This document shows, piece by piece, positions 11,893 through 24,178 of a stretch of DNA of 64,000 nucleotides (its first letter is position 1; every line of letters begins with the position of its first letter). The notes beneath the pieces were generated by a model. It was given only the letters and a program-made list of their open reading frames with translations. It was not told the origin of the DNA and made no database searches. Location of the stretch: the NCBI RefSeq assembly GCF_002831665.1, contig NZ_CP025118.1, positions 3,472,001 through 3,536,000 on the forward strand, in the 5' to 3' direction. Position numbers and translations under genes: made by a program. Source of the DNA: Lacinutrix sp. Bg11-31. GTDB taxonomy: Bacteria > Bacteroidota > Bacteroidia > Flavobacteriales > Flavobacteriaceae.

Positions 11893-11917
11893 GTTAACAG
11901 ATTAAAAAATATTATCA

Positions 11918-11951
11918 AGAAAGCCCGAACTATACTTTGGGCTTTCTTTTA
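11918..11951 (+). terminator. Rho-independent terminator of the metal operon
   Basis: A perfect 9-bp stem AGAAAGCCC (11918-11926) pairs with GGGCTTTCT (11939-11947), followed by a T-rich tract. It ends the operon 8064-11892. Confidence 0.85.
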
Positions 11952-12160
11952 TTTTGGATGTCTGGTCTTGAAATAAGTTGGTGTAAAATTAACGTCTAAT
12001 GAAAAAGAAAGTAAAACGATTTAATACTGACGACTTGAGTTCTAAAATTTGCTAATTAATTATACGTTGCTTTTTAGCAGTTGTAATCTGCATTTTAGAA
12101 GTTTTATAAGTAAGAATCCAAGTGAAATTGTAATTTTGATTATAATTTTTCCACATTTTG

Positions 12161-15088
12161 ATGAGATTTTTAATTTTAAAATTGTTTTTGTTAGCTTCAT
12201 TTTTAATGCAAGCACAAGAACCCGTGTCTGTTAATCTCACAGAAAAAGATGGCTTGCCAGATAAGGAATTCTATAATATTATTGAAGACAGTAAAGGTTT
12301 TATTTGGTTGTGTGCAGATAAAGGTTTGTTTAGATACGATGGTAAAAATTTTAAAAACTACAGTAATAAAGAAAAAAGAGGGCTTTCGGTATTTAATGTT
12401 TTAGAAGACGAACAAGGTAAGATTTGGTGCAATAATATTTTTGGTCAGTTTTTTTATGTTGAAGAAGATAAATTACATACGTTTATAGATTTAAGCACCC
12501 AGTTAAAAGGAGAACTTGCTTTTTTTTTAGTAAATAAAGACTATCTAATAGTGTTTTCTCAAAACACAATTTATTATATAAATAGAATCACCAAATTAAT
12601 TGAAAAAACACACTATTCAAATGTAAACTACAGCTCACCTATCGAAATAGGAAATGAAACTTATATAGCCACACTAGATTCTATTGCTTTAATTAATGAA
12701 AAAAATAAGCTTAAAAAATTATTCCCTATTGGTTTTTCGGCAAGAGATAAAAACAATGCAAGTATAATTGGAGGTAGAACACATCTATTTAAATTAGATT
12801 CACTTTTGTTTTTAAGGCAAGTTCGAAATAGAAAAAACACATTTTTTAAAATTGATGTATCCAAAAAAAGAGTAAAAAAATTAGAAGCTTTAAAAGCAAT
12901 TGAAAAAGATATAATTTATCATGTTTTTGAAAATAACAATAAAATTTGGCTTTCTACAAACAATGGTGTTTGGATTTATAGTTGGGTTAACAACCAGTAT
13001 AAAGAAGAGCGACAATTTTTAAAAGGAAAAAATGTTACTAAAACTATTAAAGACAAAGATGGTAACTATTGGTTTATTACTTTAAATAGCGGAATTTATA
13101 TTGTGCCAAATATTTATATTGAAAAATATGCCATTTCAGAGGCTTATAAAAATATAAGTAGCTTAGATAAAATAAACGAACACACACTTTTTTTTGGTTC
13201 TAACAACGGTAATATAGGTTTATACAATGTAATAACCAATACAGAAACCACAATTGCAATACCAAATAAATCTAGAGTTTCTGCCATAAGGTACAACCCT
13301 AATAAAGAGGTTAGTTATATTGGAAAAGACTTAAACGGTTACATATTAGACCATAAGTCACTTCAGCTAAAAAAAATAGCCAGCTCGTCCTCTGTTAAAA
13401 ATTTTTTAATTTTAGATAATAATGATGTACATGTTATAGATTATAAAAGCATCTATTTATTAAAAAATGGAGATAATAAAGAGGTGAAAAGGTTATCCAT
13501 TAATAAGCGACCTTACACCTCTTTTTATAGTAAAAAAACAAAAGCGACATATATCGCTTATGTAGACGGTTTGGTTAAATATAATATTTGGGACAAGCCA
13601 GAAGCTATAGTGTGTAAAAATAAACCTATTTATGGGTTGTCTATTTCTGAAACTAAAGACGGTGTTTTGTGGGTAGGAACTTTTAAAGATGGTGTTTACG
13701 GAATAAAAGAAGATAAAGTAGCGTATCATTTTACAACTAAAAATGGTTTGGTTTCTAATAGAATTGAAAAAATAAAAGCAGACAATAATAATTTATGGAT
13801 AGCAACAGATTCTGGTATTCAGGAGTTAAATACAAATACAAAAACTTTTAAAACACTAACAAAAAGTGATGGTATTGTTTCTTACGATGTTTCTGGAATA
13901 GAAATTTTGAAAGACAAGGTTGTTTTTTCATCTAGCGAGGGACTTTTTTCTGTAGACAAACAAAAAGCATTTAAAAAACAAAAAGCAGTAGAAGTATATT
14001 TTACAAACGTAGAAATTAATGAAAAAGAAGTAAAATTAGCTTCTAGTTATAAATTAAGTTACAACCAAAATGCTATTAAATTTAGTTTTAATGTAAATGG
14101 ATTGCTGTTTAATAAAAAAGGTAAATATAAATACAGGTTACTAGGTTTTAATAAAGATTGGGTCACCACAACCATTGGAGAAATTAGTGTGAAATACAAT
14201 AGTTTGCCAGCTGGAAATTACACATTTCAAGTGCAACCTGTTTTAGACGAAACGAAAATTAATAGCAAAACAATAGCGCTTAGCTTTTCAATTAAAAAAC
14301 CCTTTTGGAAAACGTGGTGGTTTATTTTAGGTTTCTCTATTTTAGTTTTAGTTTCTATTATTTTATACTACCGAAGAAAAATAAAAAAGGAAGAAAAGCA
14401 ACGTTTAGTAGAAGTGAAACAATTATCGTTAGATAAGCAACTTATTGCCTTGAAACTAGAGAATTTACGCTCGCAAATGAATCCGCATTTTATATTTAAT
14501 GCGCTTAATTCTATTCAAGAATATATTGTTTTAAATCAGAAAAAATTAGCAAGCGAATATTTAGGGAAATTTGCAGATTTAATTAGAACTTACCTTAACC
14601 ACAGTACAAAAGGACATATTACTTTACAAGAAGAAATAAATTGCCTTGAAATGTATTTAGAGCTCGAAAAACTTCGTTTTGAAGATAAGTTACATTATAC
14701 CATTTCAATTTCTGGAAATTTAAAAGCAGAAGATATTAGTATGCCAACAATGTTAATTCAGCCTTATGTTGAGAATGCATTAAAACACGGTTTATTACAT
14801 AGAAAAGATAATAGAAAACTAAAGATAAGTTTCTTTATTTGTGAAATATCAAAAACAATCAAATGTGTTATAGTCGATAATGGTGTTGGTAGAGATAAAG
14901 CCGAAGAGTATAAGGCGAGAAGCCATAAAAAACACCAGTCTTTTGCTACCAAAGCAACCGAAAATAGATTAGATTTATTAAACTATGGTAAAGAAAAGCA
15001 AGTAGGTATAACAATTACAGATTTGTTTGAAGCTGAAGAACCAACAGGAACTCAAGTAGATATTATAATACCATATACAACACATTAA
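12161..15088 (+). CDS. Hybrid-less sensor histidine kinase with propeller sensor (LytS/YpdA type)
   Basis: This 975-residue kinase has a signal peptide (to about residue 19) and a large periplasmic region of two-component-regulator propeller repeats (for example GFIWLCADKGLFRYDGKNF, GVLWVGTFKDGVYGI, NNLWIATDSGIQELN). A Y_Y_Y domain (about 610-705), one membrane helix (about 712-735), a His_kinase domain with the phospho-acceptor in QMNPHFIFNALNSIQEYI (H776) and an ATPase domain with YVENALKHGL follow. It senses an unknown periplasmic signal and phosphorylates the LytTR regulator encoded 3 bp downstream. ATG 12161 is chosen over an adjacent TTG. Unlike SusR-type hybrids it has no receiver or AraC domain. 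Confidence 0.93.
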   Translation: MRFLILKLFLLASFLMQAQEPVSVNLTEKDGLPDKEFYNIIEDSKGFIWLCADKGLFRYDGKNFKNYSNKEKRGLSVFNVLEDEQGKIWCNNIFGQFFYVEEDKLHTFIDLSTQLKGELAFFLVNKDYLIVFSQNTIYYINRITKLIEKTHYSNVNYSSPIEIGNETYIATLDSIALINEKNKLKKLFPIGFSARDKNNASIIGGRTHLFKLDSLLFLRQVRNRKNTFFKIDVSKKRVKKLEALKAIEKDIIYHVFENNNKIWLSTNNGVWIYSWVNNQYKEERQFLKGKNVTKTIKDKDGNYWFITLNSGIYIVPNIYIEKYAISEAYKNISSLDKINEHTLFFGSNNGNIGLYNVITNTETTIAIPNKSRVSAIRYNPNKEVSYIGKDLNGYILDHKSLQLKKIASSSSVKNFLILDNNDVHVIDYKSIYLLKNGDNKEVKRLSINKRPYTSFYSKKTKATYIAYVDGLVKYNIWDKPEAIVCKNKPIYGLSISETKDGVLWVGTFKDGVYGIKEDKVAYHFTTKNGLVSNRIEKIKADNNNLWIATDSGIQELNTNTKTFKTLTKSDGIVSYDVSGIEILKDKVVFSSSEGLFSVDKQKAFKKQKAVEVYFTNVEINEKEVKLASSYKLSYNQNAIKFSFNVNGLLFNKKGKYKYRLLGFNKDWVTTTIGEISVKYNSLPAGNYTFQVQPVLDETKINSKTIALSFSIKKPFWKTWWFILGFSILVLVSIILYYRRKIKKEEKQRLVEVKQLSLDKQLIALKLENLRSQMNPHFIFNALNSIQEYIVLNQKKLASEYLGKFADLIRTYLNHSTKGHITLQEEINCLEMYLELEKLRFEDKLHYTISISGNLKAEDISMPTMLIQPYVENALKHGLLHRKDNRKLKISFFICEISKTIKCVIVDNGVGRDKAEEYKARSHKKHQSFATKATENRLDLLNYGKEKQVGITITDLFEAEEPTGTQVDIIIPYTTH

Positions 15089-15091
15089 ATT

Positions 15092-15844
15092 ATGAAAGTA
15101 GTAATTATAGACGACGAACCAAAAGCAAGAAAATTACTAGAGGTATTAGTTAAAGAAAACTGCCCAAAAATAACAACCATTTTTACCGCTGAAGATTTAT
15201 TAAGTGGTGTTGAATTAATTAAAAACGAGCAGCCACAAATAGTTTTTTTAGATATTGAAATGCCAGAGCATTCTGGTTTAGAAATTTTCGATTTTATAGA
15301 AGCAAGCCAAAGAAATTTTGAGATTGTATTTACTACAGCGTACAGCGAATATGCTCTACAAGCGTTTCAGCTTTCTGCAATAGATTATTTGTTGAAACCT
15401 ATTCGTGCCGAAAAAATTATAGAATCTGTAGATAAAGCGATAGCTAATATTGGTAAATCACAAATTAATGTAAAATTAGAAGAGTTACGTAAAAGTTTAA
15501 CAGCAGTAAACTTTAATAAAATAGGTTTACCAGTAGCAAATGGTATTAAGTTTGTAAATTTTGAAGACATAGTTTTACTAAAAGCAGATGGTATGTACAC
15601 AACGGTTGTGCTTCAAAATAAATCTGAAATTGTTATTAGTAAGCCACTAAAACATTTTGTAGAATTATTGGAGAAAATCTCTACCTTTTACAAGCCGCAT
15701 CGCTCTTATTTAATAAATCTAAAATACATTCAAGAGTACTCTAAAAAAGATGGAGGCTATATTGTTATGGATAATAATGAGAGTGTTTCCATATCAAAAG
15801 ACAAGAAGGAAGAGTTCTTAACTATTGTACAAAGTATTGGGTAA
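15092..15844 (+). CDS. LytTR-family response regulator
   Basis: This 250-residue regulator has a receiver domain (residues 1-120; acidic pocket D7-D8, phospho-acceptor D54 in FLDIEMPEHSG, conserved lysine in YLLKPI) and a C-terminal LytTR DNA-binding domain (about 145-248, with FYKPHRSYLINLKYIQEY). LytTR domains usually bind two direct repeats about two helical turns apart. It begins 3 bp after the kinase gene. Repeats with exactly this geometry sit in front of the genes at 15945, 20081 and 22509, starting 5 bp after this gene's stop, so these are its likely targets. Confidence 0.95.
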   Translation: MKVVIIDDEPKARKLLEVLVKENCPKITTIFTAEDLLSGVELIKNEQPQIVFLDIEMPEHSGLEIFDFIEASQRNFEIVFTTAYSEYALQAFQLSAIDYLLKPIRAEKIIESVDKAIANIGKSQINVKLEELRKSLTAVNFNKIGLPVANGIKFVNFEDIVLLKADGMYTTVVLQNKSEIVISKPLKHFVELLEKISTFYKPHRSYLINLKYIQEYSKKDGGYIVMDNNESVSISKDKKEEFLTIVQSIG

Positions 15845-15848
15845 CTTT

Positions 15849-15881
15849 CTTTTAGAAACTCAAAATACACTTTCAGAAATT
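15849..15881 (+). promoter_or_regulatory. Putative LytTR operator, site A (before the 1325-aa secreted protein)
   Basis: Two direct repeats, CTTTTAGAAACT (15849-15860) and CTTTCAGAAATT (15870-15881), are 21 bp apart from start to start and agree at 10 of 12 positions. The right repeat ends 28 bp before a perfect -7 box. The same layout recurs at sites B and C. Confidence 0.7.
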
Positions 15882-15909
15882 GTCATAAATTTTAAGCTAG
15901 CCTAGCTAG

Positions 15910-15917
15910 TAGATTTG
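15910..15917 (+). promoter_or_regulatory. -7 promoter box of the gene at 15945
   Basis: TAGATTTG matches TAnnTTTG fully, 27 bp before the ATG. No consensus -33 TTG lies at the normal spacing, as expected for an activator-dependent promoter. Confidence 0.6.
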
Positions 15918-15944
15918 TTTTCATAAAACTAAAAAACTCATATT

Positions 15945-18900
15945 ATGAAAAACAAGTTACTCTTAATACTACTTTTAATAAGTAGTTTCTCCTTTGCTCA
16001 ACTTCCTACAGATGAGATTAGCAGGTATTTATTTACTTCAGGATCTCTTATTAACGAAATAAATCCTGGCGTAGAAGATCTAGTGAGAGCAGGAACTGCT
16101 GGTGTCTCAAGTGTTGATAGACTTTTAACAGCTGGCGATTCGCAACTATTAAATGGCGATTACCTAACCAGAGGTAATTATAATTCTACAAATTCTTCTT
16201 TAAGTTTTTGGGTAAAAACTACTACAAACGATGCTGTTAAACGAACCGTTTTCGATAAAAGTGTAAGAACTGGCTCAGGATTTGGGACATTTGAAACAGG
16301 TTTTTTCATTCATTTACAAGATGGGAAAATAGGAATAGACGGTTCGTATGTACAAAGTAATGCACCTGGAGGAGCAAACACTCAAAACTCCTTTTCTTAT
16401 ACAAATACTACAAATATAGACGATGGCAACTGGCATCATATTGTAATTACAAACAGAAGAACATATCCAGAAGTTGGTAATTATGCAAATGCACATTATC
16501 TTTTAACATACTATTTCAATATATATATTGATGGAGTGGCAGAATCTTTTCAGAAAAACAATCAAAACTCATTTTCAATAGATAATCCGCTTAATGTAAA
16601 TCAAAATTTAACTGTCGCAAATAAAGCTACTTTACCACAGTTGTTGAGTACAGATGTTTATTTAGATGAAATTGATGATATTTATGTATATGAAAGAGTT
16701 TTAACAACACCAGAAGTAGTTTCTATTCGTGATAATGGTGGGTTTTGTGTTCCGCCAGATGCTTCAGACTTTTCTGTAACCAACATTAACTCTGGTCAAG
16801 CTACAATTATACTTCCTGCAGCAAGTAATAGTACTTATGAAGCTGCAATAGTAGAATCTGGAATGCCATTTAATACAGCCGTTTTTACATCTAATTTATA
16901 TGGTGTAAATGGAATAATACCTGGTTTATTAGCTAATAAAACATATGATCTTTATTTAAGAAAAGATTGTCAAGCTCCAGGAGTTTGGTCTAATTGGTCT
17001 AATGCAATTACATTTAGTACACCAACTTCAATAATCTATGTAGATTCTGGTGCTTCAGGAATAAACGATGGTAGTAGCTGGACTAATGCATACACAACAG
17101 TAAACGCAGCATTTGCAGCAGCAACACAAATGAGTGAAATTTGGGTAAAAGGAGGCGTTTATAATCCAGATGTTTTTGATACCTCTATAAGTTTTACGCT
17201 TACCGTTAATAATGTAGGTGTATATGGTGGTTTTGCTGGAACAGAAACCAGTTTGTCTAATCGTGTTTTAGGAACAAATCCAACTATTCTTTCGGGCGAT
17301 TTGTTTGCAAATGACAATAGTACTTTAAGTTATAATAACACATCAAGATCAGATAACAGTATAAATGTATTAAAAGTAGATGCAGACAATGTAATAATTG
17401 ATGGTTTTACTGTTAGTGGTGGCGAAGGAGTTAATGGAGCAGGAATTATAAAAAATGTAGAAGCAGATGGTTTTGTTTTAAGAAATATGATTATCGAAAA
17501 TAATGTGGCAGTAAATTCTGCAGCAGGATTTCAATGCCAATTAAATAGAACTGGTGATGTAAAAATTGAAAACTCAATTTTTAGAAATAATTTAAGTACA
17601 TATTATGCAGGAGCATATTTTTACTTCGGAAAATCTAGTAGTACATCAGGTACTGTTTATATTAATAATACGCTTTTTGAAGGTAATAAAATTGAAGACG
17701 AACCTAATAGGCCAGGAGCATCAGGTCCAGCTTTAGGTTATTATGGTACTAATGGAGGTGTTCTAAATATGCGTATAAACAATTGTACATTTGTAAACAA
17801 TACCGATTCTGGAACATTGGCAACTGCAGATAGAGGAGTTGTTGTTGGAGGTAGGTATAATGGTGGTCTTCCTCCTGATTTAGATATCTCAAATTCTATT
17901 TTTTGGAACAATACAAGAAATGCAAGTATTCTTGATGAATATGGTACATCTACCTTTTATGGTGCTGGTTATACAAACGTAGACAATACTATTGGGCAAG
18001 GGAACCTAAATACAATAACAGCAGACCCTCTTTTTACTAATAGCGCATTAAGTGATTATACATTACAAGGTAACTCACCAGCAGCTGATGCTGGAGACAA
18101 TACTAAAGTAGAAAATGATATTGTTACAGATTTAGCAGGAAACAGAAGAATTATTGGTACTACAGTAGATATGGGAGCTTACGAGCTTACTCGTAATTGT
18201 AACGAGTTGTTTAATTATAAATTTACGAGCGTTTCAGGCTCACCAGGAACAGCAATATTAACTTGGTTGCATCCTTTTAATCCATCTGGACCTTTCGATT
18301 TAATTTATGTAACATCTGGGCAGCCAATGGGAAATGGAACTACTGTTAGTAGCCTTACAACGCAGTCTCACACCATAACTGGTTTAAATGATGGTTTTTA
18401 TGATGTTTACATTCGTGCATATTGTAATGGAACACCAGCAGCATACGTAATGCAAACTATAGGATTTAACACACCTTGGTTTGTAGATTTAAATGCTACA
18501 GGAACAAGTATAGGGAAAAACTGGGTAAATGCTTTTACAACTATTCAAGAAGCACTTGCAGTTGCACAGTCTGGAGATAAAATATGGGTTGCACAAGGTA
18601 TCTATAAACCTACAGCTGGAAGTCGCTCAAACACCTTCAACTTTAATATAGATAATTTAGAGGTTTATGGAGGTTTTGATGGAACCGAAACAGATATTTC
18701 ACAACGTAATCATCTTATTAATGAAACTATTTTAAGTGGTGATATTAATGATAACGATACGGCTTTAGGTTTCTCTGAAGCTAACAGAGCCGAAAATAAC
18801 TACCACGTAATAACCATAAATGGGAATGATATTTTAGTAAATGGAATAGCAGTTTCTGGAGGTCAGGCAAATGCAACTAGTGGTAATGATGGGGCTGGAG

Positions 18901-19922
18901 CAGGAATTTTTATAGCTTCAACTGCTGTAAATTTAGTAGTAGATAAATGTGTTTTTAGAAATAATGTAGCTATTGGTGGAGCATCAATATACACTAGACC
19001 AAATACAACAACTATGCTGACTGTAAATTCTAGCCAGTTTTACAATAATATGGGTAATTATGGAGTAGGTGTTTATGTTATTAATGATGGTGCAATTACA
19101 CATGATGTAGAAATTTCAAATTCATTATTTTATAATAACGAATCTAGAAACCGTAATGGTGCAGATGGTTTTACAGGAAGTGCTATTTGGTTGCGAGCAA
19201 ATACAGCTAGTAGTACATTAACATCAAATATATCAAATTGTACATTTACAGGGAATTCAGATATTGGTACTAGAGCAAGTACCCAACGAGGAGCTGTAAG
19301 TCTTTCAAGAAATTCTGGAGCAACGCATACTTCTGCAGTATCTAATAGTGTTTTCTTTAATAATACAGGAGCTGGAGGCGTAACAACACCAGCTTTAACT
19401 AAAGGACATTCTACATTTATTACAAGTGTTTTGGTTAGTAACTCTATAGATCCAGATAATTTTTCAACATTACCTCCATCTTTTAAAGTTAATGTTAGTA
19501 CTGCAGATCCATTATTTTTAAATGCTGCAACTAATGATTACACATTAAGTTCAAGTTCGCCAGCAATAGATGCAGGAGATAATACTTATGTAATAGGATC
19601 AACAGATTTAAGTGGAGCTGCAAGAATTTTTAATACAAATGTAGATATGGGAGCTTATGAGTATGTAACTACTTTAGGTGTAGGCGATTTTGAATTTTAT
19701 AAAAAAGAAATAAAACTATACCCAAACCCAACAACTTCAGTTTTAAATATTAAAATGAAGAGCAACTTAAAACAAGCAACAATCTATTCTGTTTTAGGAA
19801 CGGAGGTTTTAAAAATCACATCTAAAACCATAAATACTTCTAATTTACAATCTGGAATGTATTTAATCAAAATAGAAAATGAAACAGGAAGTGTAACCAC
19901 CAAACGTTTTATTAAACAGTAG
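15945..19922 (+). CDS. Large T9SS-secreted protein with LamG, Fn3-like and two beta-helix domains
   Basis: This 1325-residue extracellular protein has a signal peptide (1-18), a LamG/concanavalin-like domain (about 45-265, with LSFWVKTT and GNWHHIVITN), a fibronectin-like domain (about 275-360) and a right-handed beta-helix of the choice-of-anchor Q type (about 365-745; DGSSWTNAYTTVNAAF, YGGFAGTETSLS). A second Fn3-like domain (about 750-840), a second beta-helix unit (about 845-1240; GKNWVNAFTTIQEAL, YGGFDGTETDIS) and a type A sorting domain (about 1255-1325, LYPNPTTSVLNIK to the final RFIKQ) follow. The Fn3/beta-helix pair is an internal duplication. It could bind or degrade polysaccharide or act in adhesion; no catalytic residues can be assigned. 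It is probably controlled by the upstream kinase/LytTR pair. Confidence 0.9.
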   Translation: MKNKLLLILLLISSFSFAQLPTDEISRYLFTSGSLINEINPGVEDLVRAGTAGVSSVDRLLTAGDSQLLNGDYLTRGNYNSTNSSLSFWVKTTTNDAVKRTVFDKSVRTGSGFGTFETGFFIHLQDGKIGIDGSYVQSNAPGGANTQNSFSYTNTTNIDDGNWHHIVITNRRTYPEVGNYANAHYLLTYYFNIYIDGVAESFQKNNQNSFSIDNPLNVNQNLTVANKATLPQLLSTDVYLDEIDDIYVYERVLTTPEVVSIRDNGGFCVPPDASDFSVTNINSGQATIILPAASNSTYEAAIVESGMPFNTAVFTSNLYGVNGIIPGLLANKTYDLYLRKDCQAPGVWSNWSNAITFSTPTSIIYVDSGASGINDGSSWTNAYTTVNAAFAAATQMSEIWVKGGVYNPDVFDTSISFTLTVNNVGVYGGFAGTETSLSNRVLGTNPTILSGDLFANDNSTLSYNNTSRSDNSINVLKVDADNVIIDGFTVSGGEGVNGAGIIKNVEADGFVLRNMIIENNVAVNSAAGFQCQLNRTGDVKIENSIFRNNLSTYYAGAYFYFGKSSSTSGTVYINNTLFEGNKIEDEPNRPGASGPALGYYGTNGGVLNMRINNCTFVNNTDSGTLATADRGVVVGGRYNGGLPPDLDISNSIFWNNTRNASILDEYGTSTFYGAGYTNVDNTIGQGNLNTITADPLFTNSALSDYTLQGNSPAADAGDNTKVENDIVTDLAGNRRIIGTTVDMGAYELTRNCNELFNYKFTSVSGSPGTAILTWLHPFNPSGPFDLIYVTSGQPMGNGTTVSSLTTQSHTITGLNDGFYDVYIRAYCNGTPAAYVMQTIGFNTPWFVDLNATGTSIGKNWVNAFTTIQEALAVAQSGDKIWVAQGIYKPTAGSRSNTFNFNIDNLEVYGGFDGTETDISQRNHLINETILSGDINDNDTALGFSEANRAENNYHVITINGNDILVNGIAVSGGQANATSGNDGAGAGIFIASTAVNLVVDKCVFRNNVAIGGASIYTRPNTTTMLTVNSSQFYNNMGNYGVGVYVINDGAITHDVEISNSLFYNNESRNRNGADGFTGSAIWLRANTASSTLTSNISNCTFTGNSDIGTRASTQRGAVSLSRNSGATHTSAVSNSVFFNNTGAGGVTTPALTKGHSTFITSVLVSNSIDPDNFSTLPPSFKVNVSTADPLFLNAATNDYTLSSSSPAIDAGDNTYVIGSTDLSGAARIFNTNVDMGAYEYVTTLGVGDFEFYKKEIKLYPNPTTSVLNIKMKSNLKQATIYSVLGTEVLKITSKTINTSNLQSGMYLIKIENETGSVTTKRFIKQ

Positions 19923-19947
19923 TTTTTTAGTTAGTAATTATTGTTTT

Positions 19948-19984
19948 AAATCTCGTAAGCGTAAAGCTTGCGAGGTTTTTTGTT
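19948..19984 (+). terminator. Rho-independent terminator after the 1325-aa protein gene
   Basis: Stem AAATCTCGTAAGC (19948-19960) pairs with GCTTGCGAGGTTT (19966-19978) with two G-T pairs and a GTAAA loop, followed by a T-rich tract. Site B of the putative LytTR operator starts at once afterwards. Confidence 0.82.
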
Positions 19985-20017
19985 TTTTCGGAAACCGAAA
20001 GAACGCTTTCAGAAATT
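19985..20017 (+). promoter_or_regulatory. Putative LytTR operator, site B (before the 490-aa secreted protein)
   Basis: Direct repeats TTTTCGGAAACC (19985-19996) and CTTTCAGAAATT (20006-20017) are 21 bp apart. The right copy is identical to that of site A. A -7-like GATATTTG (20046-20053) starts exactly 28 bp after the right repeat, the same distance as at site A. Confidence 0.68.
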
Positions 20018-20080
20018 ACCATAATTTCTCACACGTTTCTTGTTAGATATTTGTCAAAATATTATAAAATACCACTTATT

Positions 20081-21553
20081 ATGAAAAACAAATTACTTTT
20101 ATTATTCACACTAATATCAACATTAAGCTATGCTCAAACTTATACTTATGATTGGAGTTCAGTCTCATTTAATGGAAGCATTTCTGTAAGTCAAAATGTT
20201 GCAGGAGTACAAGCTGAGTGTACCAATTCTTCAAATACTGTAGAAGTGCTTAATGGAGGAGGATACGCAGGATCTAATGGGAATATTATAACTTCTACAG
20301 GAAACGTTAACTCTATGACAGTTACATTTAGTGATCCAATAAACGTTCAATCCATATTTGCTTTTGATGGAAATGGTGTTGCAGGTAACTGGACATTCTG
20401 GCCAGCAGGAGGAACAAACTCTAATGTTACGCAAAGTATAGCTGCATCAGTAGGAAGTACCATAAATGTAGGTTGGACAAATGTTACCAGCTTTACAATT
20501 ACAAAGAGTAATGGTGTAGCGAGATTTTCAATAGATGATATTGTATTTTCTATTCCTGTATGTAGTGATGTAAATATACCAGACGCAAATTTTAAAACCT
20601 ATTTAATAGGTAATAGTAACATTAATACCAATGGAGATAACGAAATACAATGTACAGAAGCTTCTAGCTTTAATGGAGACATGTTTCTTAATGCTTTAAA
20701 TATCTCTGATTTAACAGGTATTGAACAGTTTCCGCTACTAAACACATTACGTTGTAAGAATAATAATTTAACAACTATAGATGTATCATCAAATACAAAT
20801 TTAACGCTTTTAGATTGTTCTAATAACTTGCTAACGACGCTAGATGTAACAAGTAATGTAGATTTAGCTGTTTTAAGATGTCATTATAATTCTTTATCAA
20901 CTATAAATACATCTTTTAATTCAGACTTGACCGAGTTAAGCTGTGTGTCTAATAATCTTACAGGTTTAGATTTAACTAATAATTTAGATTTGTATAGTCT
21001 AAATTTTGCTCAAAACGCGTTGACAACTCTAGATGTCTCTTTTAATACATCTTTAAATATTTTGGCTTGTATGGATAATTCGATTACCAATTTAGATGTT
21101 TCATTAAATACTGGGTTAGGTTTTTTAAATTGTGAAAACAATGAGTTGTCTGCTTTAAACGTCGCAAACGGTAATAATTCTGATATTTTTGGAGGCGTTA
21201 ATGCTTTAGGTAATTCTAACCTAAATTGTATACAAATAGATACGGGTTTTACACCAACAGCAAATTGGCAAAAAGATGCAGCTGCAACTTATAGTGATAA
21301 CTGTCCTACTCTTAGTGTTGCTAATTTCGAGTTAGCTCATGTCGCATTATATCCAAATCCAACAACGTCAGTTTTAAATATTAAAACTAAGGGCAACTTA
21401 AAACAAGCAACTATTTATTCTGTTTTAGGAGTTAAGATTTTAGAAACAGCATCAAAAAATATAACCACATTAAATTTAAAAAGCGGTATGTATTTAATTT
21501 CAATTGAAGATGAAAACGGAAGTATTTCAACAAAACGATTCATTAAAAATTAA
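20081..21553 (+). CDS. T9SS-secreted leucine-rich-repeat protein
   Basis: This 490-residue protein has a signal peptide (1-19), an N-terminal beta-rich domain of unknown type (about 20-165) and about eight short leucine-rich repeats of roughly 21 residues (about 180-400; pattern LTxLDVSxNTxLxxLxCxxN, many repeats with a cysteine). A type A sorting domain (about 420-490, LYPNPTTSVLNIK) closes the protein. It is expected on the cell surface or outside the cell via T9SS, perhaps in binding or adhesion. ATG 20081 is chosen because it opens a clean signal peptide; an in-frame TTG 30 bp upstream does not. The next gene, 47 bp on, encodes a shorter relative. Confidence 0.88.
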   Translation: MKNKLLLLFTLISTLSYAQTYTYDWSSVSFNGSISVSQNVAGVQAECTNSSNTVEVLNGGGYAGSNGNIITSTGNVNSMTVTFSDPINVQSIFAFDGNGVAGNWTFWPAGGTNSNVTQSIAASVGSTINVGWTNVTSFTITKSNGVARFSIDDIVFSIPVCSDVNIPDANFKTYLIGNSNINTNGDNEIQCTEASSFNGDMFLNALNISDLTGIEQFPLLNTLRCKNNNLTTIDVSSNTNLTLLDCSNNLLTTLDVTSNVDLAVLRCHYNSLSTINTSFNSDLTELSCVSNNLTGLDLTNNLDLYSLNFAQNALTTLDVSFNTSLNILACMDNSITNLDVSLNTGLGFLNCENNELSALNVANGNNSDIFGGVNALGNSNLNCIQIDTGFTPTANWQKDAAATYSDNCPTLSVANFELAHVALYPNPTTSVLNIKTKGNLKQATIYSVLGVKILETASKNITTLNLKSGMYLISIEDENGSISTKRFIKN

Positions 21554-21600
21554 AAGAATACCAAACTAATTTTAAAAATATTAACTCAAAAAAAACAATT

Positions 21601-22401
21601 ATGAAAACAAGATTACTATTCATTTATACTTTCTTCAATATGCTAATAGGTATAAATGCTCAGAATGTAAACATACCAGATGTAAATTTTAAGGCAGCTT
21701 TAGTTGCTAATAATAATATAAATATAAATAATGATGCAGAAATACAAGTAAGTGAGGCAAGTGCATATACAGGAACTATTTCTGTTTCAAATTTAAATAT
21801 TCAAGATTTAACAGGAATTGAAGCTTTTACAGAGATTATATCTTTACAGGCTTTTGGCAATTCATCACTTACAAGTATTAATGTTAGTCAAAACACAAAA
21901 CTTACACAATTGCTTATAGAGCAAACTGGTGTTTCTGGAATTTTAGATCTAAGTATGCTTGCATTTCTTGTAGATTTTAAAGGACACACTACAGCTATTA
22001 CAGCTATAAATATGGAAAATGGAAATAATAGTAATGTTACTCGTTTTAATGTTGTAAATAGTACTGTTACTTGTGTGCAAATAGATGCAGGTTTTACGCC
22101 TAATTCTAATTGGGATGTTCCTGCTTCTGCAAGTTATAATGCAAGTTGTCCAGCATTGCTAAGCGTAGAGGAATTTAAGTTAGATTTAGTGTCTTTATAT
22201 CCAAACCCAACAATTTCTGTTTTAAATATTAAAATAAATAGGGAATTAAAAAAAGCAACTATTTATACTGTTTTAGGGATGAAAGTTTTAGAGACAACAT
22301 CAAAAAAAATAACAATATCAAACTTAAAAACAGGTATGTATTTAATTGAAATTCAAGATGAAATAGGAAATATCTCAACCAAACGTTTTATTAAACAGTA
22401 G
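21601..22401 (+). CDS. Short T9SS-secreted LRR-like protein, paralogue of the upstream gene
   Basis: This 266-residue protein has a signal peptide (1-20), an LRR-like region (about 22-170) and a type A sorting domain (about 190-266). It resembles the preceding protein: both open the LRR part with VNIPDxNFK, share LTGIE and a CxQIDxGFTPxxNW block, and have very similar sorting domains. The repeats are fewer and less regular, so it looks like a reduced tandem duplicate. It probably shares the transcript of the gene at 20081, because the 47-bp gap shows no promoter or terminator. Confidence 0.85.
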   Translation: MKTRLLFIYTFFNMLIGINAQNVNIPDVNFKAALVANNNININNDAEIQVSEASAYTGTISVSNLNIQDLTGIEAFTEIISLQAFGNSSLTSINVSQNTKLTQLLIEQTGVSGILDLSMLAFLVDFKGHTTAITAINMENGNNSNVTRFNVVNSTVTCVQIDAGFTPNSNWDVPASASYNASCPALLSVEEFKLDLVSLYPNPTISVLNIKINRELKKATIYTVLGMKVLETTSKKITISNLKTGMYLIEIQDEIGNISTKRFIKQ

Positions 22402-22410
22402 GTTTTGTGT

Positions 22411-22443
22411 GTTTTAGAAACTGAAAATCCGGTTTCAGAAAGT
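22411..22443 (+). promoter_or_regulatory. Putative LytTR operator, site C (before the 109-aa protein)
   Basis: Direct repeats GTTTTAGAAACT (22411-22422) and GTTTCAGAAAGT (22432-22443) are again 21 bp apart and agree at 10 of 12 positions. The octamer AATCTTTA (22472-22479), a weak version of TAnnTTTG, starts exactly 28 bp after the right repeat. Confidence 0.65.
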
Positions 22444-22508
22444 AAAAGGTTTATTATTCAGTTTAATAGAGAATCTTTACAGTAATTAATAAATAATATC
22501 AAAATTAT

Positions 22509-22838
22509 ATGAAAATAATACTCGTAACATTAAGTCTATTTAGTGCATTGTTTTTTTCTGAAACTAAAAATATTTCCGAAGAAAACCAACCAAAAGTAGA
22601 AGCAATAAGCAAAGCAACAATAGGTAGCAGTTTTAAACTTATTAATGATACTAAAGAGAAAGTAAGTATCTACACAGGAACCGGTTTTGTATCGCTTAAC
22701 AAAGGGTCAAGTACTAGTATTGGTTGTAATACTGGAAAAGAAGTACGTTGGGCAAGCAAAGGAAAAAAAGGAGATGTAATTTTTAAAATTGAATCTAAAC
22801 ATTGCGGTAAAACCATTAAGCTTTCCAAAGTAATGTAA
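22509..22838 (+). CDS. Small exported protein of unknown function
   Basis: This 109-residue protein has a hydrophobic N-terminus that looks like a signal peptide (about 1-18), a short acidic linker and a basic, lysine- and serine-rich domain (about 40-109) with two cysteines (in SIGCNTGKEV and KHCGKTIKL) that could form a disulfide. I do not recognise a family. It carries no T9SS sorting domain, so it may stay in the periplasm. It has its own copy of the putative LytTR operator, which ties it to the kinase/regulator pair upstream, and is followed by a terminator. Confidence 0.7.
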   Translation: MKIILVTLSLFSALFFSETKNISEENQPKVEAISKATIGSSFKLINDTKEKVSIYTGTGFVSLNKGSSTSIGCNTGKEVRWASKGKKGDVIFKIESKHCGKTIKLSKVM

Positions 22839-23031: not shown

Positions 23032-23400
23032 TTAAAAAGCATTAATTAGTAATAGTAACCAGCCAATTACTAAAAGTAATCCTCCAAGAGGAGTAATAGG
23101 TCCTAGAAAGCGAAGTTTTTTTCCTTTAGCATCAGATAAAATTAATCCGTAAATGCTAAAAGAGAATAGTATAATACCTAGTGTAAAGCACCAGTATATT
23201 GTAGAGGTTACATTTTTAGAATTAAAACCTAAAACTAATAAAACAATAGCATGATACATTTGGTATTTTACGCCAACATCAAAACTATGTAACTGCTCGT
23301 TAGATAAAATCTTTTTTAGAGCATGAGCGCCAAAGGCTCCAAATATTACAGATAACATTCCAAAAAAGGTACCTGTAGCAATTATAATTTCTTGTGTCAT
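23032..23400 (-). CDS. DUF423 family small membrane protein
   Basis: This 122-residue protein has four predicted membrane helices and the family signatures GMLSVIFGAFGAHALKKIL near the N-terminus and GPITPLGGLLLVIGWL near the C-terminus. The role of DUF423 (YgdD-like) proteins is unknown; they sit in the inner membrane. ATG 23400 is chosen because it starts directly before the first helix and avoids overlap with the upstream methyltransferase gene, which ends 13 bp before. It is the last gene of the map operon. Confidence 0.88.
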   Translation of the reverse strand: MTQEIIIATGTFFGMLSVIFGAFGAHALKKILSNEQLHSFDVGVKYQMYHAIVLLVLGFNSKNVTSTIYWCFTLGIILFSFSIYGLILSDAKGKKLRFLGPITPLGGLLLVIGWLLLLINAF

Positions 23401-23413
23401 TACTATTAGAATT

Positions 23414-24178
23414 TTATTTGTAAACAATAGGAATAATTTCTCCTTGGGCTAAGCAGTATTTGCTAATTTCTTCTTTAGTAAGTCTTGCAGTGTAATCTTC
23501 TTCATTTACCATAAAACCAATCTCTCTGAGTTTATTAAAGTAATCATGACCATAAACACGCACATGATCGTATTGACCAAATATTTTAGCACGTTCTTTT
23601 TTATCTGTTATAGTATCATCTTCAAAGGTAGTAGTTCTAGATAAATCTTGAGGAATCTGAAAAATCCCATAACCACCAGGTTTCATAACGCGAAACAGCT
23701 CTCGCATAGCCTCAGTATCGTCTGGAATATGTTCTAAAACATGATTACACAAAATAATATCGTAACTATTATCTTCAAACGGAAGGTTACAAATATCTGC
23801 TTTTACATCTGCAATAGGAGATAGTAAATCGGTTGTAGTATAATCAAGATTATCTAATGCTTTAAAACGTTTTAAGAAACACTGTTCTGGAGCAAAATGA
23901 AGTACGCTTTTTTTAGCAGAAAAGAAATCGGTTTCGTTTTGTAGATACAACCATAATAATCGGTGTCTTTCTAAAGATAAAGTAGAAGGAGATAATACGT
24001 TATTACGTTGTTCGCCATAACCATAAGGTAGAAAAGATTTGAAGCTTTTACCGTCTATTGGATCTGTAAATGTATTGCCTTTTAAAAAGAAAGCTAAAAT
24101 TGGTCGTGCAACATAGCTTAACCTAATTAGTAACGGTCTTGGTATGGTGTTGAGTATTAATTTGAAGAGTTTTTTCAA
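23414..24178 (-). CDS. Class I SAM-dependent methyltransferase
   Basis: This 254-residue protein has a type 11 methyltransferase domain: VLHFAPEQCFLKRF (motif I position), an acidic residue in YTTTDL, ADICNLPFEDNSYDIILCNHVLEHIPD and LFRVMKPGGYGIFQIP. The N-terminal 80 residues contain a hydrophobic stretch (PILAFFLKGNTF). The substrate cannot be read from the sequence; related genes are often annotated as involved in envelope polysaccharide or small-molecule methylation. It follows the GldL-like gene by 5 bp in the map operon. Confidence 0.88.
   Translation of the reverse strand: MKKLFKLILNTIPRPLLIRLSYVARPILAFFLKGNTFTDPIDGKSFKSFLPYGYGEQRNNVLSPSTLSLERHRLLWLYLQNETDFFSAKKSVLHFAPEQCFLKRFKALDNLDYTTTDLLSPIADVKADICNLPFEDNSYDIILCNHVLEHIPDDTEAMRELFRVMKPGGYGIFQIPQDLSRTTTFEDDTITDKKERAKIFGQYDHVRVYGHDYFNKLREIGFMVNEEDYTARLTKEEISKYCLAQGEIIPIVYK

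What the first reader, a model, noticed from the sequence alone, without database searches (positions are those of the whole stretch)
15849..22479. Three-promoter LytTR regulon signature with fixed geometry
Three intergenic regions after the LytTR regulator gene each carry two direct 12-bp repeats (consensus about YTTTYAGAAANT) exactly 21 bp apart: 15849/15870, 19985/20006 and 22411/22432. In all three the right repeat ends exactly 28 bp before the -7 octamer (TAGATTTG, GATATTTG, AATCTTTA). LytTR regulators are known to bind two direct repeats about two helical turns apart upstream of the promoter. A propeller sensor kinase, LytTR regulator, two large T9SS proteins, a reduced paralogue and a small exported protein would thus form one self-contained signalling and secretion unit.
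Basis: partly seen in the sequence, partly recalled or inferred. Interest (0 to 1): 0.85.

Follow-up and report, generated by a model that had tools for sequence, protein, structure and literature searches.

The report
LytTR switch driving secreted-protein cassettes
A bacterial sensor-regulator pair appears to have its own DNA address tag, copied in front of neighbouring genes for exported proteins and in front of the sensor gene itself, and the same tag is kept next to the same regulator in many related bacteria, so this gene circuit can now be tested directly.

Summary
Direct repeats 21 bp apart lie at 15849/15870, 19985/20006 and 22411/22432, each 28 bp before the -7 octamer. A profile trained on sites from relatives only ranks four window sites first. 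A whole-genome profile search gives these four sites and no comparable fifth.

The operator follows the regulator gene convincingly in 22 of 23 orthologue loci. No operator is significant in 47 loci of more distant regulator relatives. Among 239 family genomes, operators occur in 15 of 17 with the orthologue and 6 of 222 without. TTTG stands 30-31 bases after the operator in 55 of 70 sites, with no obvious -33 box. Of 40 products scanned, 22 carry T9SS type A tails. Regulator and operator stay constant; sensor (propeller or TPR) and cargo vary. A small exported protein occurs in 4 of 239 genomes, always in this operator array.

Best reading: the LytTR regulator activates these promoters. Binding mode known; binding here inferred.

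The parts
11917..11948 (+). terminator-like hairpin separating the unit from upstream genes
   Evidence: pattern scan, (8 found, 3.9 expected in shuffles)
   Evidence: matrix trained without the window 28.6 bits; profile E 4.7e-7 genome-wide; an operator at the equivalent place in 17 further orthologue loci
12131..12138 (+). -7 element TAATTTTG of the kinase promoter
   Evidence: sequence; TTTG at +30
12161..15088 (+). sensor kinase: Reg_prop propeller, Y_Y_Y, His_kinase (ORF caller starts at TTG 12158)
15092..15844 (+). LytTR response regulator (receiver + LytTR)
15849..15881 (+). operator 1 (repeats 15849-15860 and 15870-15881)
15910..15917 (+). -7 element TAGATTTG
15945..19922 (+). 1325-aa exported protein, choice-of-anchor Q repeats, T9SS type A tail
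19948..19978 (+). terminator-like hairpin between cassette 1 and cassette 2
19985..20017 (+). operator 2 (repeats 19985-19996 and 20006-20017)
20046..20053 (+). -7 element GATATTTG
20081..21553 (+). 490-aa LRR protein with signal-peptide-like start and T9SS type A tail (ATG 20081; the ORF caller's TTG 20051 overlaps the promoter)
21601..22401 (+). 266-aa reduced LRR paralogue, T9SS tail, no operator of its own; probably co-transcribed with the 490-aa gene
22411..22443 (+). operator 3 (repeats 22411-22422 and 22432-22443)
22472..22479 (+). -7 element AATCTTTA (weak)
22509..22838 (+). 109-aa small exported protein, unnamed family tied to this regulon

Best explanation
The repeats are the operator of the adjacent LytTR response regulator. 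The kinase (propeller or, in relatives, TPR sensor) is inferred to phosphorylate the regulator. Regulator protomers then bind the two TTYAG-type half-sites, about two helical turns apart on one DNA face. Bound there, the regulator recruits RNA polymerase to promoters that have a -7 element but no recognisable -33 box. Each operator drives its own unit: the kinase-regulator pair (feedback, probably positive), the T9SS-tailed exported proteins, and a small exported protein. Regulator and operator are the conserved core; sensor and exported cargo are interchangeable. Shown here: sites, geometry, conservation, co-occurrence, target types. Inferred: binding, activation and its sign, phosphorylation, signal.
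For: Four genome-wide sites at E <= 4.7e-7, the next at 0.012 and partial. Leave-one-locus-out scores of 20.5-42.4 bits within about 100 bp downstream of the regulator in 22 of 23 loci. No significant operator in 47 loci of more distant relatives (best E 0.013). 15 of 17 orthologue genomes against 6 of 222 others carry operators, Fisher p 3e-17; 12 of those 15 have an operator within 200 bp of the regulator's end. TTTG at +30/31 in 55 of 70 operator sites, and A three bases before it in 55 of 55, though the matrix did not include that region. Operator-to-ATG distance 58-66 bp in 40 of the 56 sites (of 70) for which a frame was found. Operator upstream of the kinase gene in 18 of 22 assessable loci. 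Published LytTR regulatory systems have direct repeats 11-13 bp apart just upstream of promoters, with autoregulation, including Bacteroides cases with TATCTTTG (PMC6193735, passages).
Against: No binding or expression data. G068 (67% identical regulator) and G057 (57%) have no significant operator even in a lenient search (best E 0.021 and 0.070). Six genomes without the orthologue have one weak site each. The L131 operator is weak: 10.1 bits, not the best in its locus, profile E 0.26. Reversed-sequence controls in distant loci reach 22.9 bits, so the 20-22-bit sites of L075, L079, L080 and L081 rest partly on their position. The site set was seeded with window sites and loci are related, so counts are not independent; R1 E-values are rough, and searches used pre-filters (150 of 12202 candidates scored). 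The -7 of site 3 is poor.
Confidence: 0.87

Rival explanations
1. The elements are bound by a different regulator, for example a dimeric helix-turn-helix protein reading the near-palindrome TTTCNGAAA, with two dimers per promoter.
For: In this window each half is close to a palindrome, and one site matches the pattern on both strands without mismatch.
Against: Across the 52 sites the halves become TTTAGAAGTT-like: C at the palindromic fourth base in only 19% of left halves (69% of right), and G instead of A at the last palindromic base in 58% (39%). The direct repeat is what is conserved. Sites track the LytTR orthologue across genomes and sit beside it.
Confidence: 0.07
2. The elements are bound by this regulator, but to repress rather than activate.
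For: The sign of control cannot be read from sequence; the regulator could bend DNA or block.
Against: The operator lies upstream of the -7 element with the pair centre about 56-59 bp before the inferred start, and no -33 consensus is visible in 55 aligned promoters. This resembles AgrA activation (promoter-proximal repeats near -60; PMC4227749, passage).
Confidence: 0.08
3. The repeats are by-products of recent gene duplication: promoters copied along with cassettes, with no regulatory meaning.
For: Cassettes in the window share ends: 67% identity over an 82-column tail alignment and a similar signal peptide, bodies unrelated.
Against: The operator columns are far more conserved than the stretch between operator and -7 across genera. 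Operators also follow the regulator in Marinoscillum (L081, E 1.6e-8) and Aureispira (L080, E 4.7e-6), outside the Flavobacteriaceae (taxonomy recalled), and stand before the unrelated kinase genes.
Confidence: 0.03

Closest known systems
LytTR regulators with direct-repeat operators (AgrA of Staphylococcus; HdrR/BrsR LytTR regulatory systems of Streptococcus mutans)
   Same: LytTR domain; two direct repeats upstream of the promoter; in the LytTR regulatory systems mostly 12-bp gaps and autoregulation (PMC4227749 and PMC6193735, passages).
   Different: Different half-site (TTYAGMARYT); Bacteroidota -7 promoter without obvious -33 box; kinase-regulator pair, not a membrane inhibitor (against HdrR/BrsR); targets often T9SS-tailed proteins.
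Bacteroides LRS-like operons (B. thetaiotaomicron, B. ovatus)
   Same: Bacteroidota; direct repeats with 11-bp gap upstream of TATCTTTG (PMC6193735, table passage).
   Different: Repeat TCCGGTATTCA/ACCGGAAATCA is unrelated; regulator has transmembrane segments and is paired with a membrane protein; repeats 34 bp (11+4+19) before the octamer, against 28 bp here.
PorX/PorY/SigP control of the type IX secretion system (recalled)
   Same: Two-component control linked to T9SS.
   Different: Recalled to control the secretion machinery through a sigma factor; here a LytTR regulator marks individual cargo genes. Not tested here.
Hybrid two-component systems of polysaccharide utilisation loci (recalled)
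   Same: Reg_prop/Y_Y_Y sensor.
   Different: Here kinase and regulator are separate proteins and the output domain is LytTR; no SusC/SusD family among the 25 of 31 target families shown.

Membership tests
LytTR-type two-component system | Response regulator with receiver and LytTR domain | tested here: met
   Pfam PF00072 E 4.1e-22 and PF04397 E 1.7e-16
LytTR-type two-component system | Adjacent His_kinase-family sensor | tested here: met
   PF06580 E 1.7e-23; in 22 of 22 kinases scanned from the orthologue loci, window included, truncated L070 left out
LytTR-type two-component system | Two direct repeats 11-13 bp apart upstream of the promoter | tested here: met
   Three window sites have 9-bp halves with a 12-bp gap without mismatch, the fourth the same period. 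Four best sums 24.8-32.1 bits at lag 21, at most 19.7 at any other lag from 14 to 32
LytTR-type two-component system | Regulator binds the repeats | not testable with these tools
   needs gel shift or footprint
LytTR regulatory system (LRS, Streptococcus type) | Regulator paired with an inhibitory membrane protein in one operon | tested here: not met
   The partner is a histidine kinase
T9SS cargo regulon | Targets carry T9SS C-terminal sorting domains | tested here: met
   3 of 4 non-kinase, non-regulator products in the window; in the scanned set 22 of 40 type A and 7 of 40 type C, so not every target
T9SS cargo regulon | Host has T9SS | tested here: met
   SprA at 2746.8 bits in the same genome; other components not checked

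The most novel reading that the evidence does not exclude
The regulon is a closed extracellular signalling loop. The small exported protein (22509-22838), which in the 239 genomes searched occurs only in genomes with this regulator and only in its operator array, would be the signal or a feedback modulator read by the sensor kinase. It would make this a protein-based counterpart of agr/com circuits in Bacteroidota that switches a variable surface coat on or off. Against it: most loci lack the protein (present in 6 of 23), and in G076 it accompanies TPR kinases, not a propeller, so it cannot be tied to one sensor type.
Probability: 0.1. Interest if true: 0.82.

Novelty: new variant of a known kind. 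Interest (0 to 1): 0.62.

Why it matters
Bacteroidota genomes can carry many LytTR genes (12 in this one), and their targets are, as far as I recall, rarely known. Here an operator, its regulator, the promoter geometry and the targets can be read together, and hold across genera. That makes the regulon predictable in new genomes and gives a way into how T9SS-exported surface proteins are switched. If the small protein is the signal, it would be an unusual communication system.

Tried and rejected
Loose pattern counts. The 2-mismatch genome count is no higher than the reversed control. Exact matches of the simple pattern occur in 177 of 397 family genomes; the control columns are of the same order by eye, not totalled. 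Only the full operator profile separates signal from noise.

Distant relatives. In 58 loci of more distant relatives (L084-L142 without L131; four of them, L134, L136, L137 and L139, matched only over the receiver part), 4 had a matrix hit of 14 bits or more, none within 1 kb of the regulator.

Direct repeats near eight of the other eleven LytTR genes of this genome: no clear 21-bp signal (L004 has hits at lags 15-25 and looks low-complexity, L002 has two positions at lag 21 and two at lag 24).

Shared domain of the small protein and the C-terminus of the 340-aa companion family. Profile comparison does not support it (one search aligns only the signal-peptide end, C-terminal parts, P 0.022). 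The predicted strand order and two cysteine positions look alike, but the 340-aa model is poor (pLDDT 51). Left open.

Fold of the small protein: seven-strand model, blocks from residue 41 on near pLDDT 90, no PDB match below E 0.001 (best 0.021, thaumatin-like). Other libraries not searched.

Palindrome reading and gene-duplication reading: see rivals.

Papers: nine searches answered and one format error. No listed title or abstract start describes this regulon; the library holds open-licence papers only. Passages were read in four papers; the other listed papers were not opened.
Full report
CHECK OF THE OBSERVATION. In the 3.665-Mb genome the exact pattern TTTYNGAAA-N12-TTTYNGAAA occurs on the + strand only at these three places. 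Loose matching is uninformative: with two mismatches the count is no higher than a reversed-pattern control.

A STRONGER TEST. 80 loci were fetched by similarity to the regulator, the best 80 of 146 found. In the 22 with a regulator 54% or more identical, plus the window (23 loci), a 34-bp weight matrix was made from 52 sites in 21 loci. Leave-one-locus-out scoring finds an operator within about 100 bp downstream of the regulator gene with 20.5 to 42.4 bits in 22 of 23 loci (reversed-sequence control maxima 0.8 to 12.8). In L131 the hit is weak (10.1, and not the best in its locus). Trained on the 48 sites from relatives only, the matrix ranks four window sites first: 15849 (37.2), 22411 (33.9), 12071 (28.6), 19985 (27.2); the fifth is 11.9, and the best score in 200 simulated windows is 27.0. 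The four best half-site sums are 24.8-32.1 bits at lag 21 and at most 19.7 at any other lag from 14 to 32. Caveats: the site set was first seeded with 13 sites that included three from the window; four loci come from one genus (Winogradskyella); and in distant loci the reversed control reaches 22.9 bits, so the 20-22-bit sites of L075, L079, L080 and L081 rest partly on their position.

A FOURTH SITE. The site at 12071-12104 lies upstream of the kinase gene, with TAATTTTG at 12131-12138. An operator of 15 bits or more at the equivalent place is present in 18 of 22 assessable loci, window included (absent in L079, L080, L081 and L131; L070 is cut off). In ten of the 18 it lies 48-58 bp before the ATG. 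In the other eight (L063, L064, L066, L069, L071, L073, L076, L077) the automatic ORF start lies 0.1-1.0 kb downstream, so there the assignment rests on position. In L081, and weakly in L080, a site lies instead between kinase and regulator.

GENOME-WIDE. A sequence-only profile of 70 positions (49 sites) gives four strong places in the whole genome: 3.9e-11, 5.1e-10, 6.9e-8 and 4.7e-7; the next is 0.012 and partial (150 of 12202 first-look candidates were scored). In 70 held sources the same profile gives 68 matches at E 2e-4 or better, all in orthologue loci, all on the + strand. The 47 loci of more distant relatives included give nothing better than 0.013. The profile includes window sites, so this shows specificity; the matrix trained on relatives is the more independent evidence.

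CO-OCCURRENCE. In 239 family genomes, nearly one per genus, 17 carry a regulator at least 55% identical (the cut-off follows the locus comparison and was set after seeing it) and 21 carry an operator at E <= 1e-4 (strict filters). The overlap is 15; Fisher p = 3e-17. In 12 of the 15 an operator lies within 200 bp of the regulator's end. In G168 and G085 it lies where the kinase promoter would be (G168 also further along the array); in G079 the regulator is cut by a contig end. Against: G068 and G057 have the regulator but no significant operator, also in a lenient search. Six genomes without the orthologue have one weak site each. Of four looked at, two lie inside open frames and two have no gene starting within 130 bp; the sequences of G112 and G147 were not looked at. 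No LytTR gene lies within 20 kb of any of the six sites on the same contig. The same-genus genome G091 has only a 49% relative and no operator, so the system is patchy.

PROMOTER GEOMETRY. Of 70 operator sites of 15 bits or more, 55 have TTTG exactly 30 (11) or 31 (44) bases after the 34-bp element; no other offset has more than 4. A precedes by three bases in 55 of 55, giving TAnnTTTG-like -7 elements, although the matrix did not cover that region. No -33 consensus is visible. For 56 of the 70 sites an ATG-started frame was found nearby; the distance is 58-66 bp in 40 of the 56. The pair centre lies about 56-59 bp before the inferred start. AgrA's promoter-proximal repeats are reported near -60 (PMC4227749, passage).

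WHAT IS CONTROLLED. In the window: a 1325-aa choice-of-anchor-Q protein, a 490-aa LRR protein, a 266-aa reduced LRR paralogue without its own operator, and a 109-aa exported protein. The first three carry T9SS type A tails; the genome encodes SprA. The 1325- and 490-aa proteins share tail (55 of 82 aligned positions) and signal peptide but not bodies. I scanned 40 products: 38 of the 44 operator-preceded genes that are neither kinase nor regulator (left out: three L078 rows and one frame each of L066, L075 and L082), plus two genes without an operator of their own (window 21601, L131 13115). Of these, 22 of 40 match the type A tail and 7 of 40 the type C tail; repeats include LRR, laminin-G, cadherin, fn3 and InlB-type. 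So over half, not all, are recognisable T9SS cargo.

SENSOR AND CARGO VARY, SWITCH IS KEPT. Of 22 kinases, 22 have His_kinase, 15 have Reg_prop and 15 have Y_Y_Y. Six have TPRs instead: L069, L072, L074, L075, L079 and L081. L081 is Marinoscillum, with a regulator 59% identical. G076 has two TPR kinases in a row, each with its own operator, beside one regulator. In G195 and G076 four operators stand on other contigs: three before genes for an exported protein, an outer-membrane-like protein and a T9SS-tailed protein (my reading of the sequences), one (G195 C4) with no gene found.

THE SMALL PROTEIN. It is found in 6 of 23 loci, the others 55-74% identical to the window's. The database search gave 555 proteins at E <= 0.01, 120 of them listed, none of those with a Pfam domain; their contexts were not examined. 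In 239 genomes it occurs in 4 (E <= 1e-8), all four in the operator array, up to about 12 kb from the regulator. An operator stands directly before it in the window, L071, G076 and G168; in L064, L066, L076, L131 and G195 none was found directly before it. Its model is a small beta domain with no significant PDB match. Its role is unknown; a signal or feedback role is the bold reading, and its presence beside TPR kinases in G076 speaks against a tie to the propeller.

COMPARISON WITH WHAT IS KNOWN. Direct-repeat operators of LytTR regulators with 11-13-bp gaps and autoregulation are published (PMC6193735, passages), including Bacteroides cases upstream of TATCTTTG with a different repeat. So the mode of action is known; the operator sequence, the regulon and the link to T9SS-tailed targets are what I did not find described. 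Nine searches of the held library gave no title or abstract start that describes it; subscription papers are mostly not held. Statements about PorX and hybrid systems are recalled.

VERDICT. Binding and activation are inferred.

Noticed in passing
L067:13608-14627 and relatives in L063, L065, L068, L072, L069: An unnamed 340-350-aa exported family under the same operator; its C-terminal strand order and two cysteines resemble the 109-aa protein, but profile comparison does not support it.
   Followed up: partly
L078:16039-17070: The same 340-aa family appears as two frames of 112 and 226 aa, so the gene looks broken there.
   Followed up: no
L071:16303 and 16475: Two operators 172 bp apart upstream of the small-protein gene; only one is at the usual distance from the ATG.
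   Followed up: no
G063 (L168), G085 and G076 (L167): Operators facing opposite ways, 91-181 bp apart by match starts, at kinase promoters (position inferred for G085), suggesting control of a divergent gene too.
   Followed up: no
G013: One relative carries 18 forward and 15 reverse exact pattern matches; the ten listed are almost the same 30-mer, so a dispersed repeat that looks unrelated to this regulon.
   Followed up: no
L068:12642 and L078:12642: A strong operator with no gene starting at the usual distance; the next listed start is 2.8 kb on. Possibly a broken or mis-called cargo gene.
   Followed up: no
window 23032-24178: The two genes downstream of the unit have counterparts beside the small-protein gene in G168 (L153), so the locus seems to sit at the same chromosomal place there.
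   Followed up: partly
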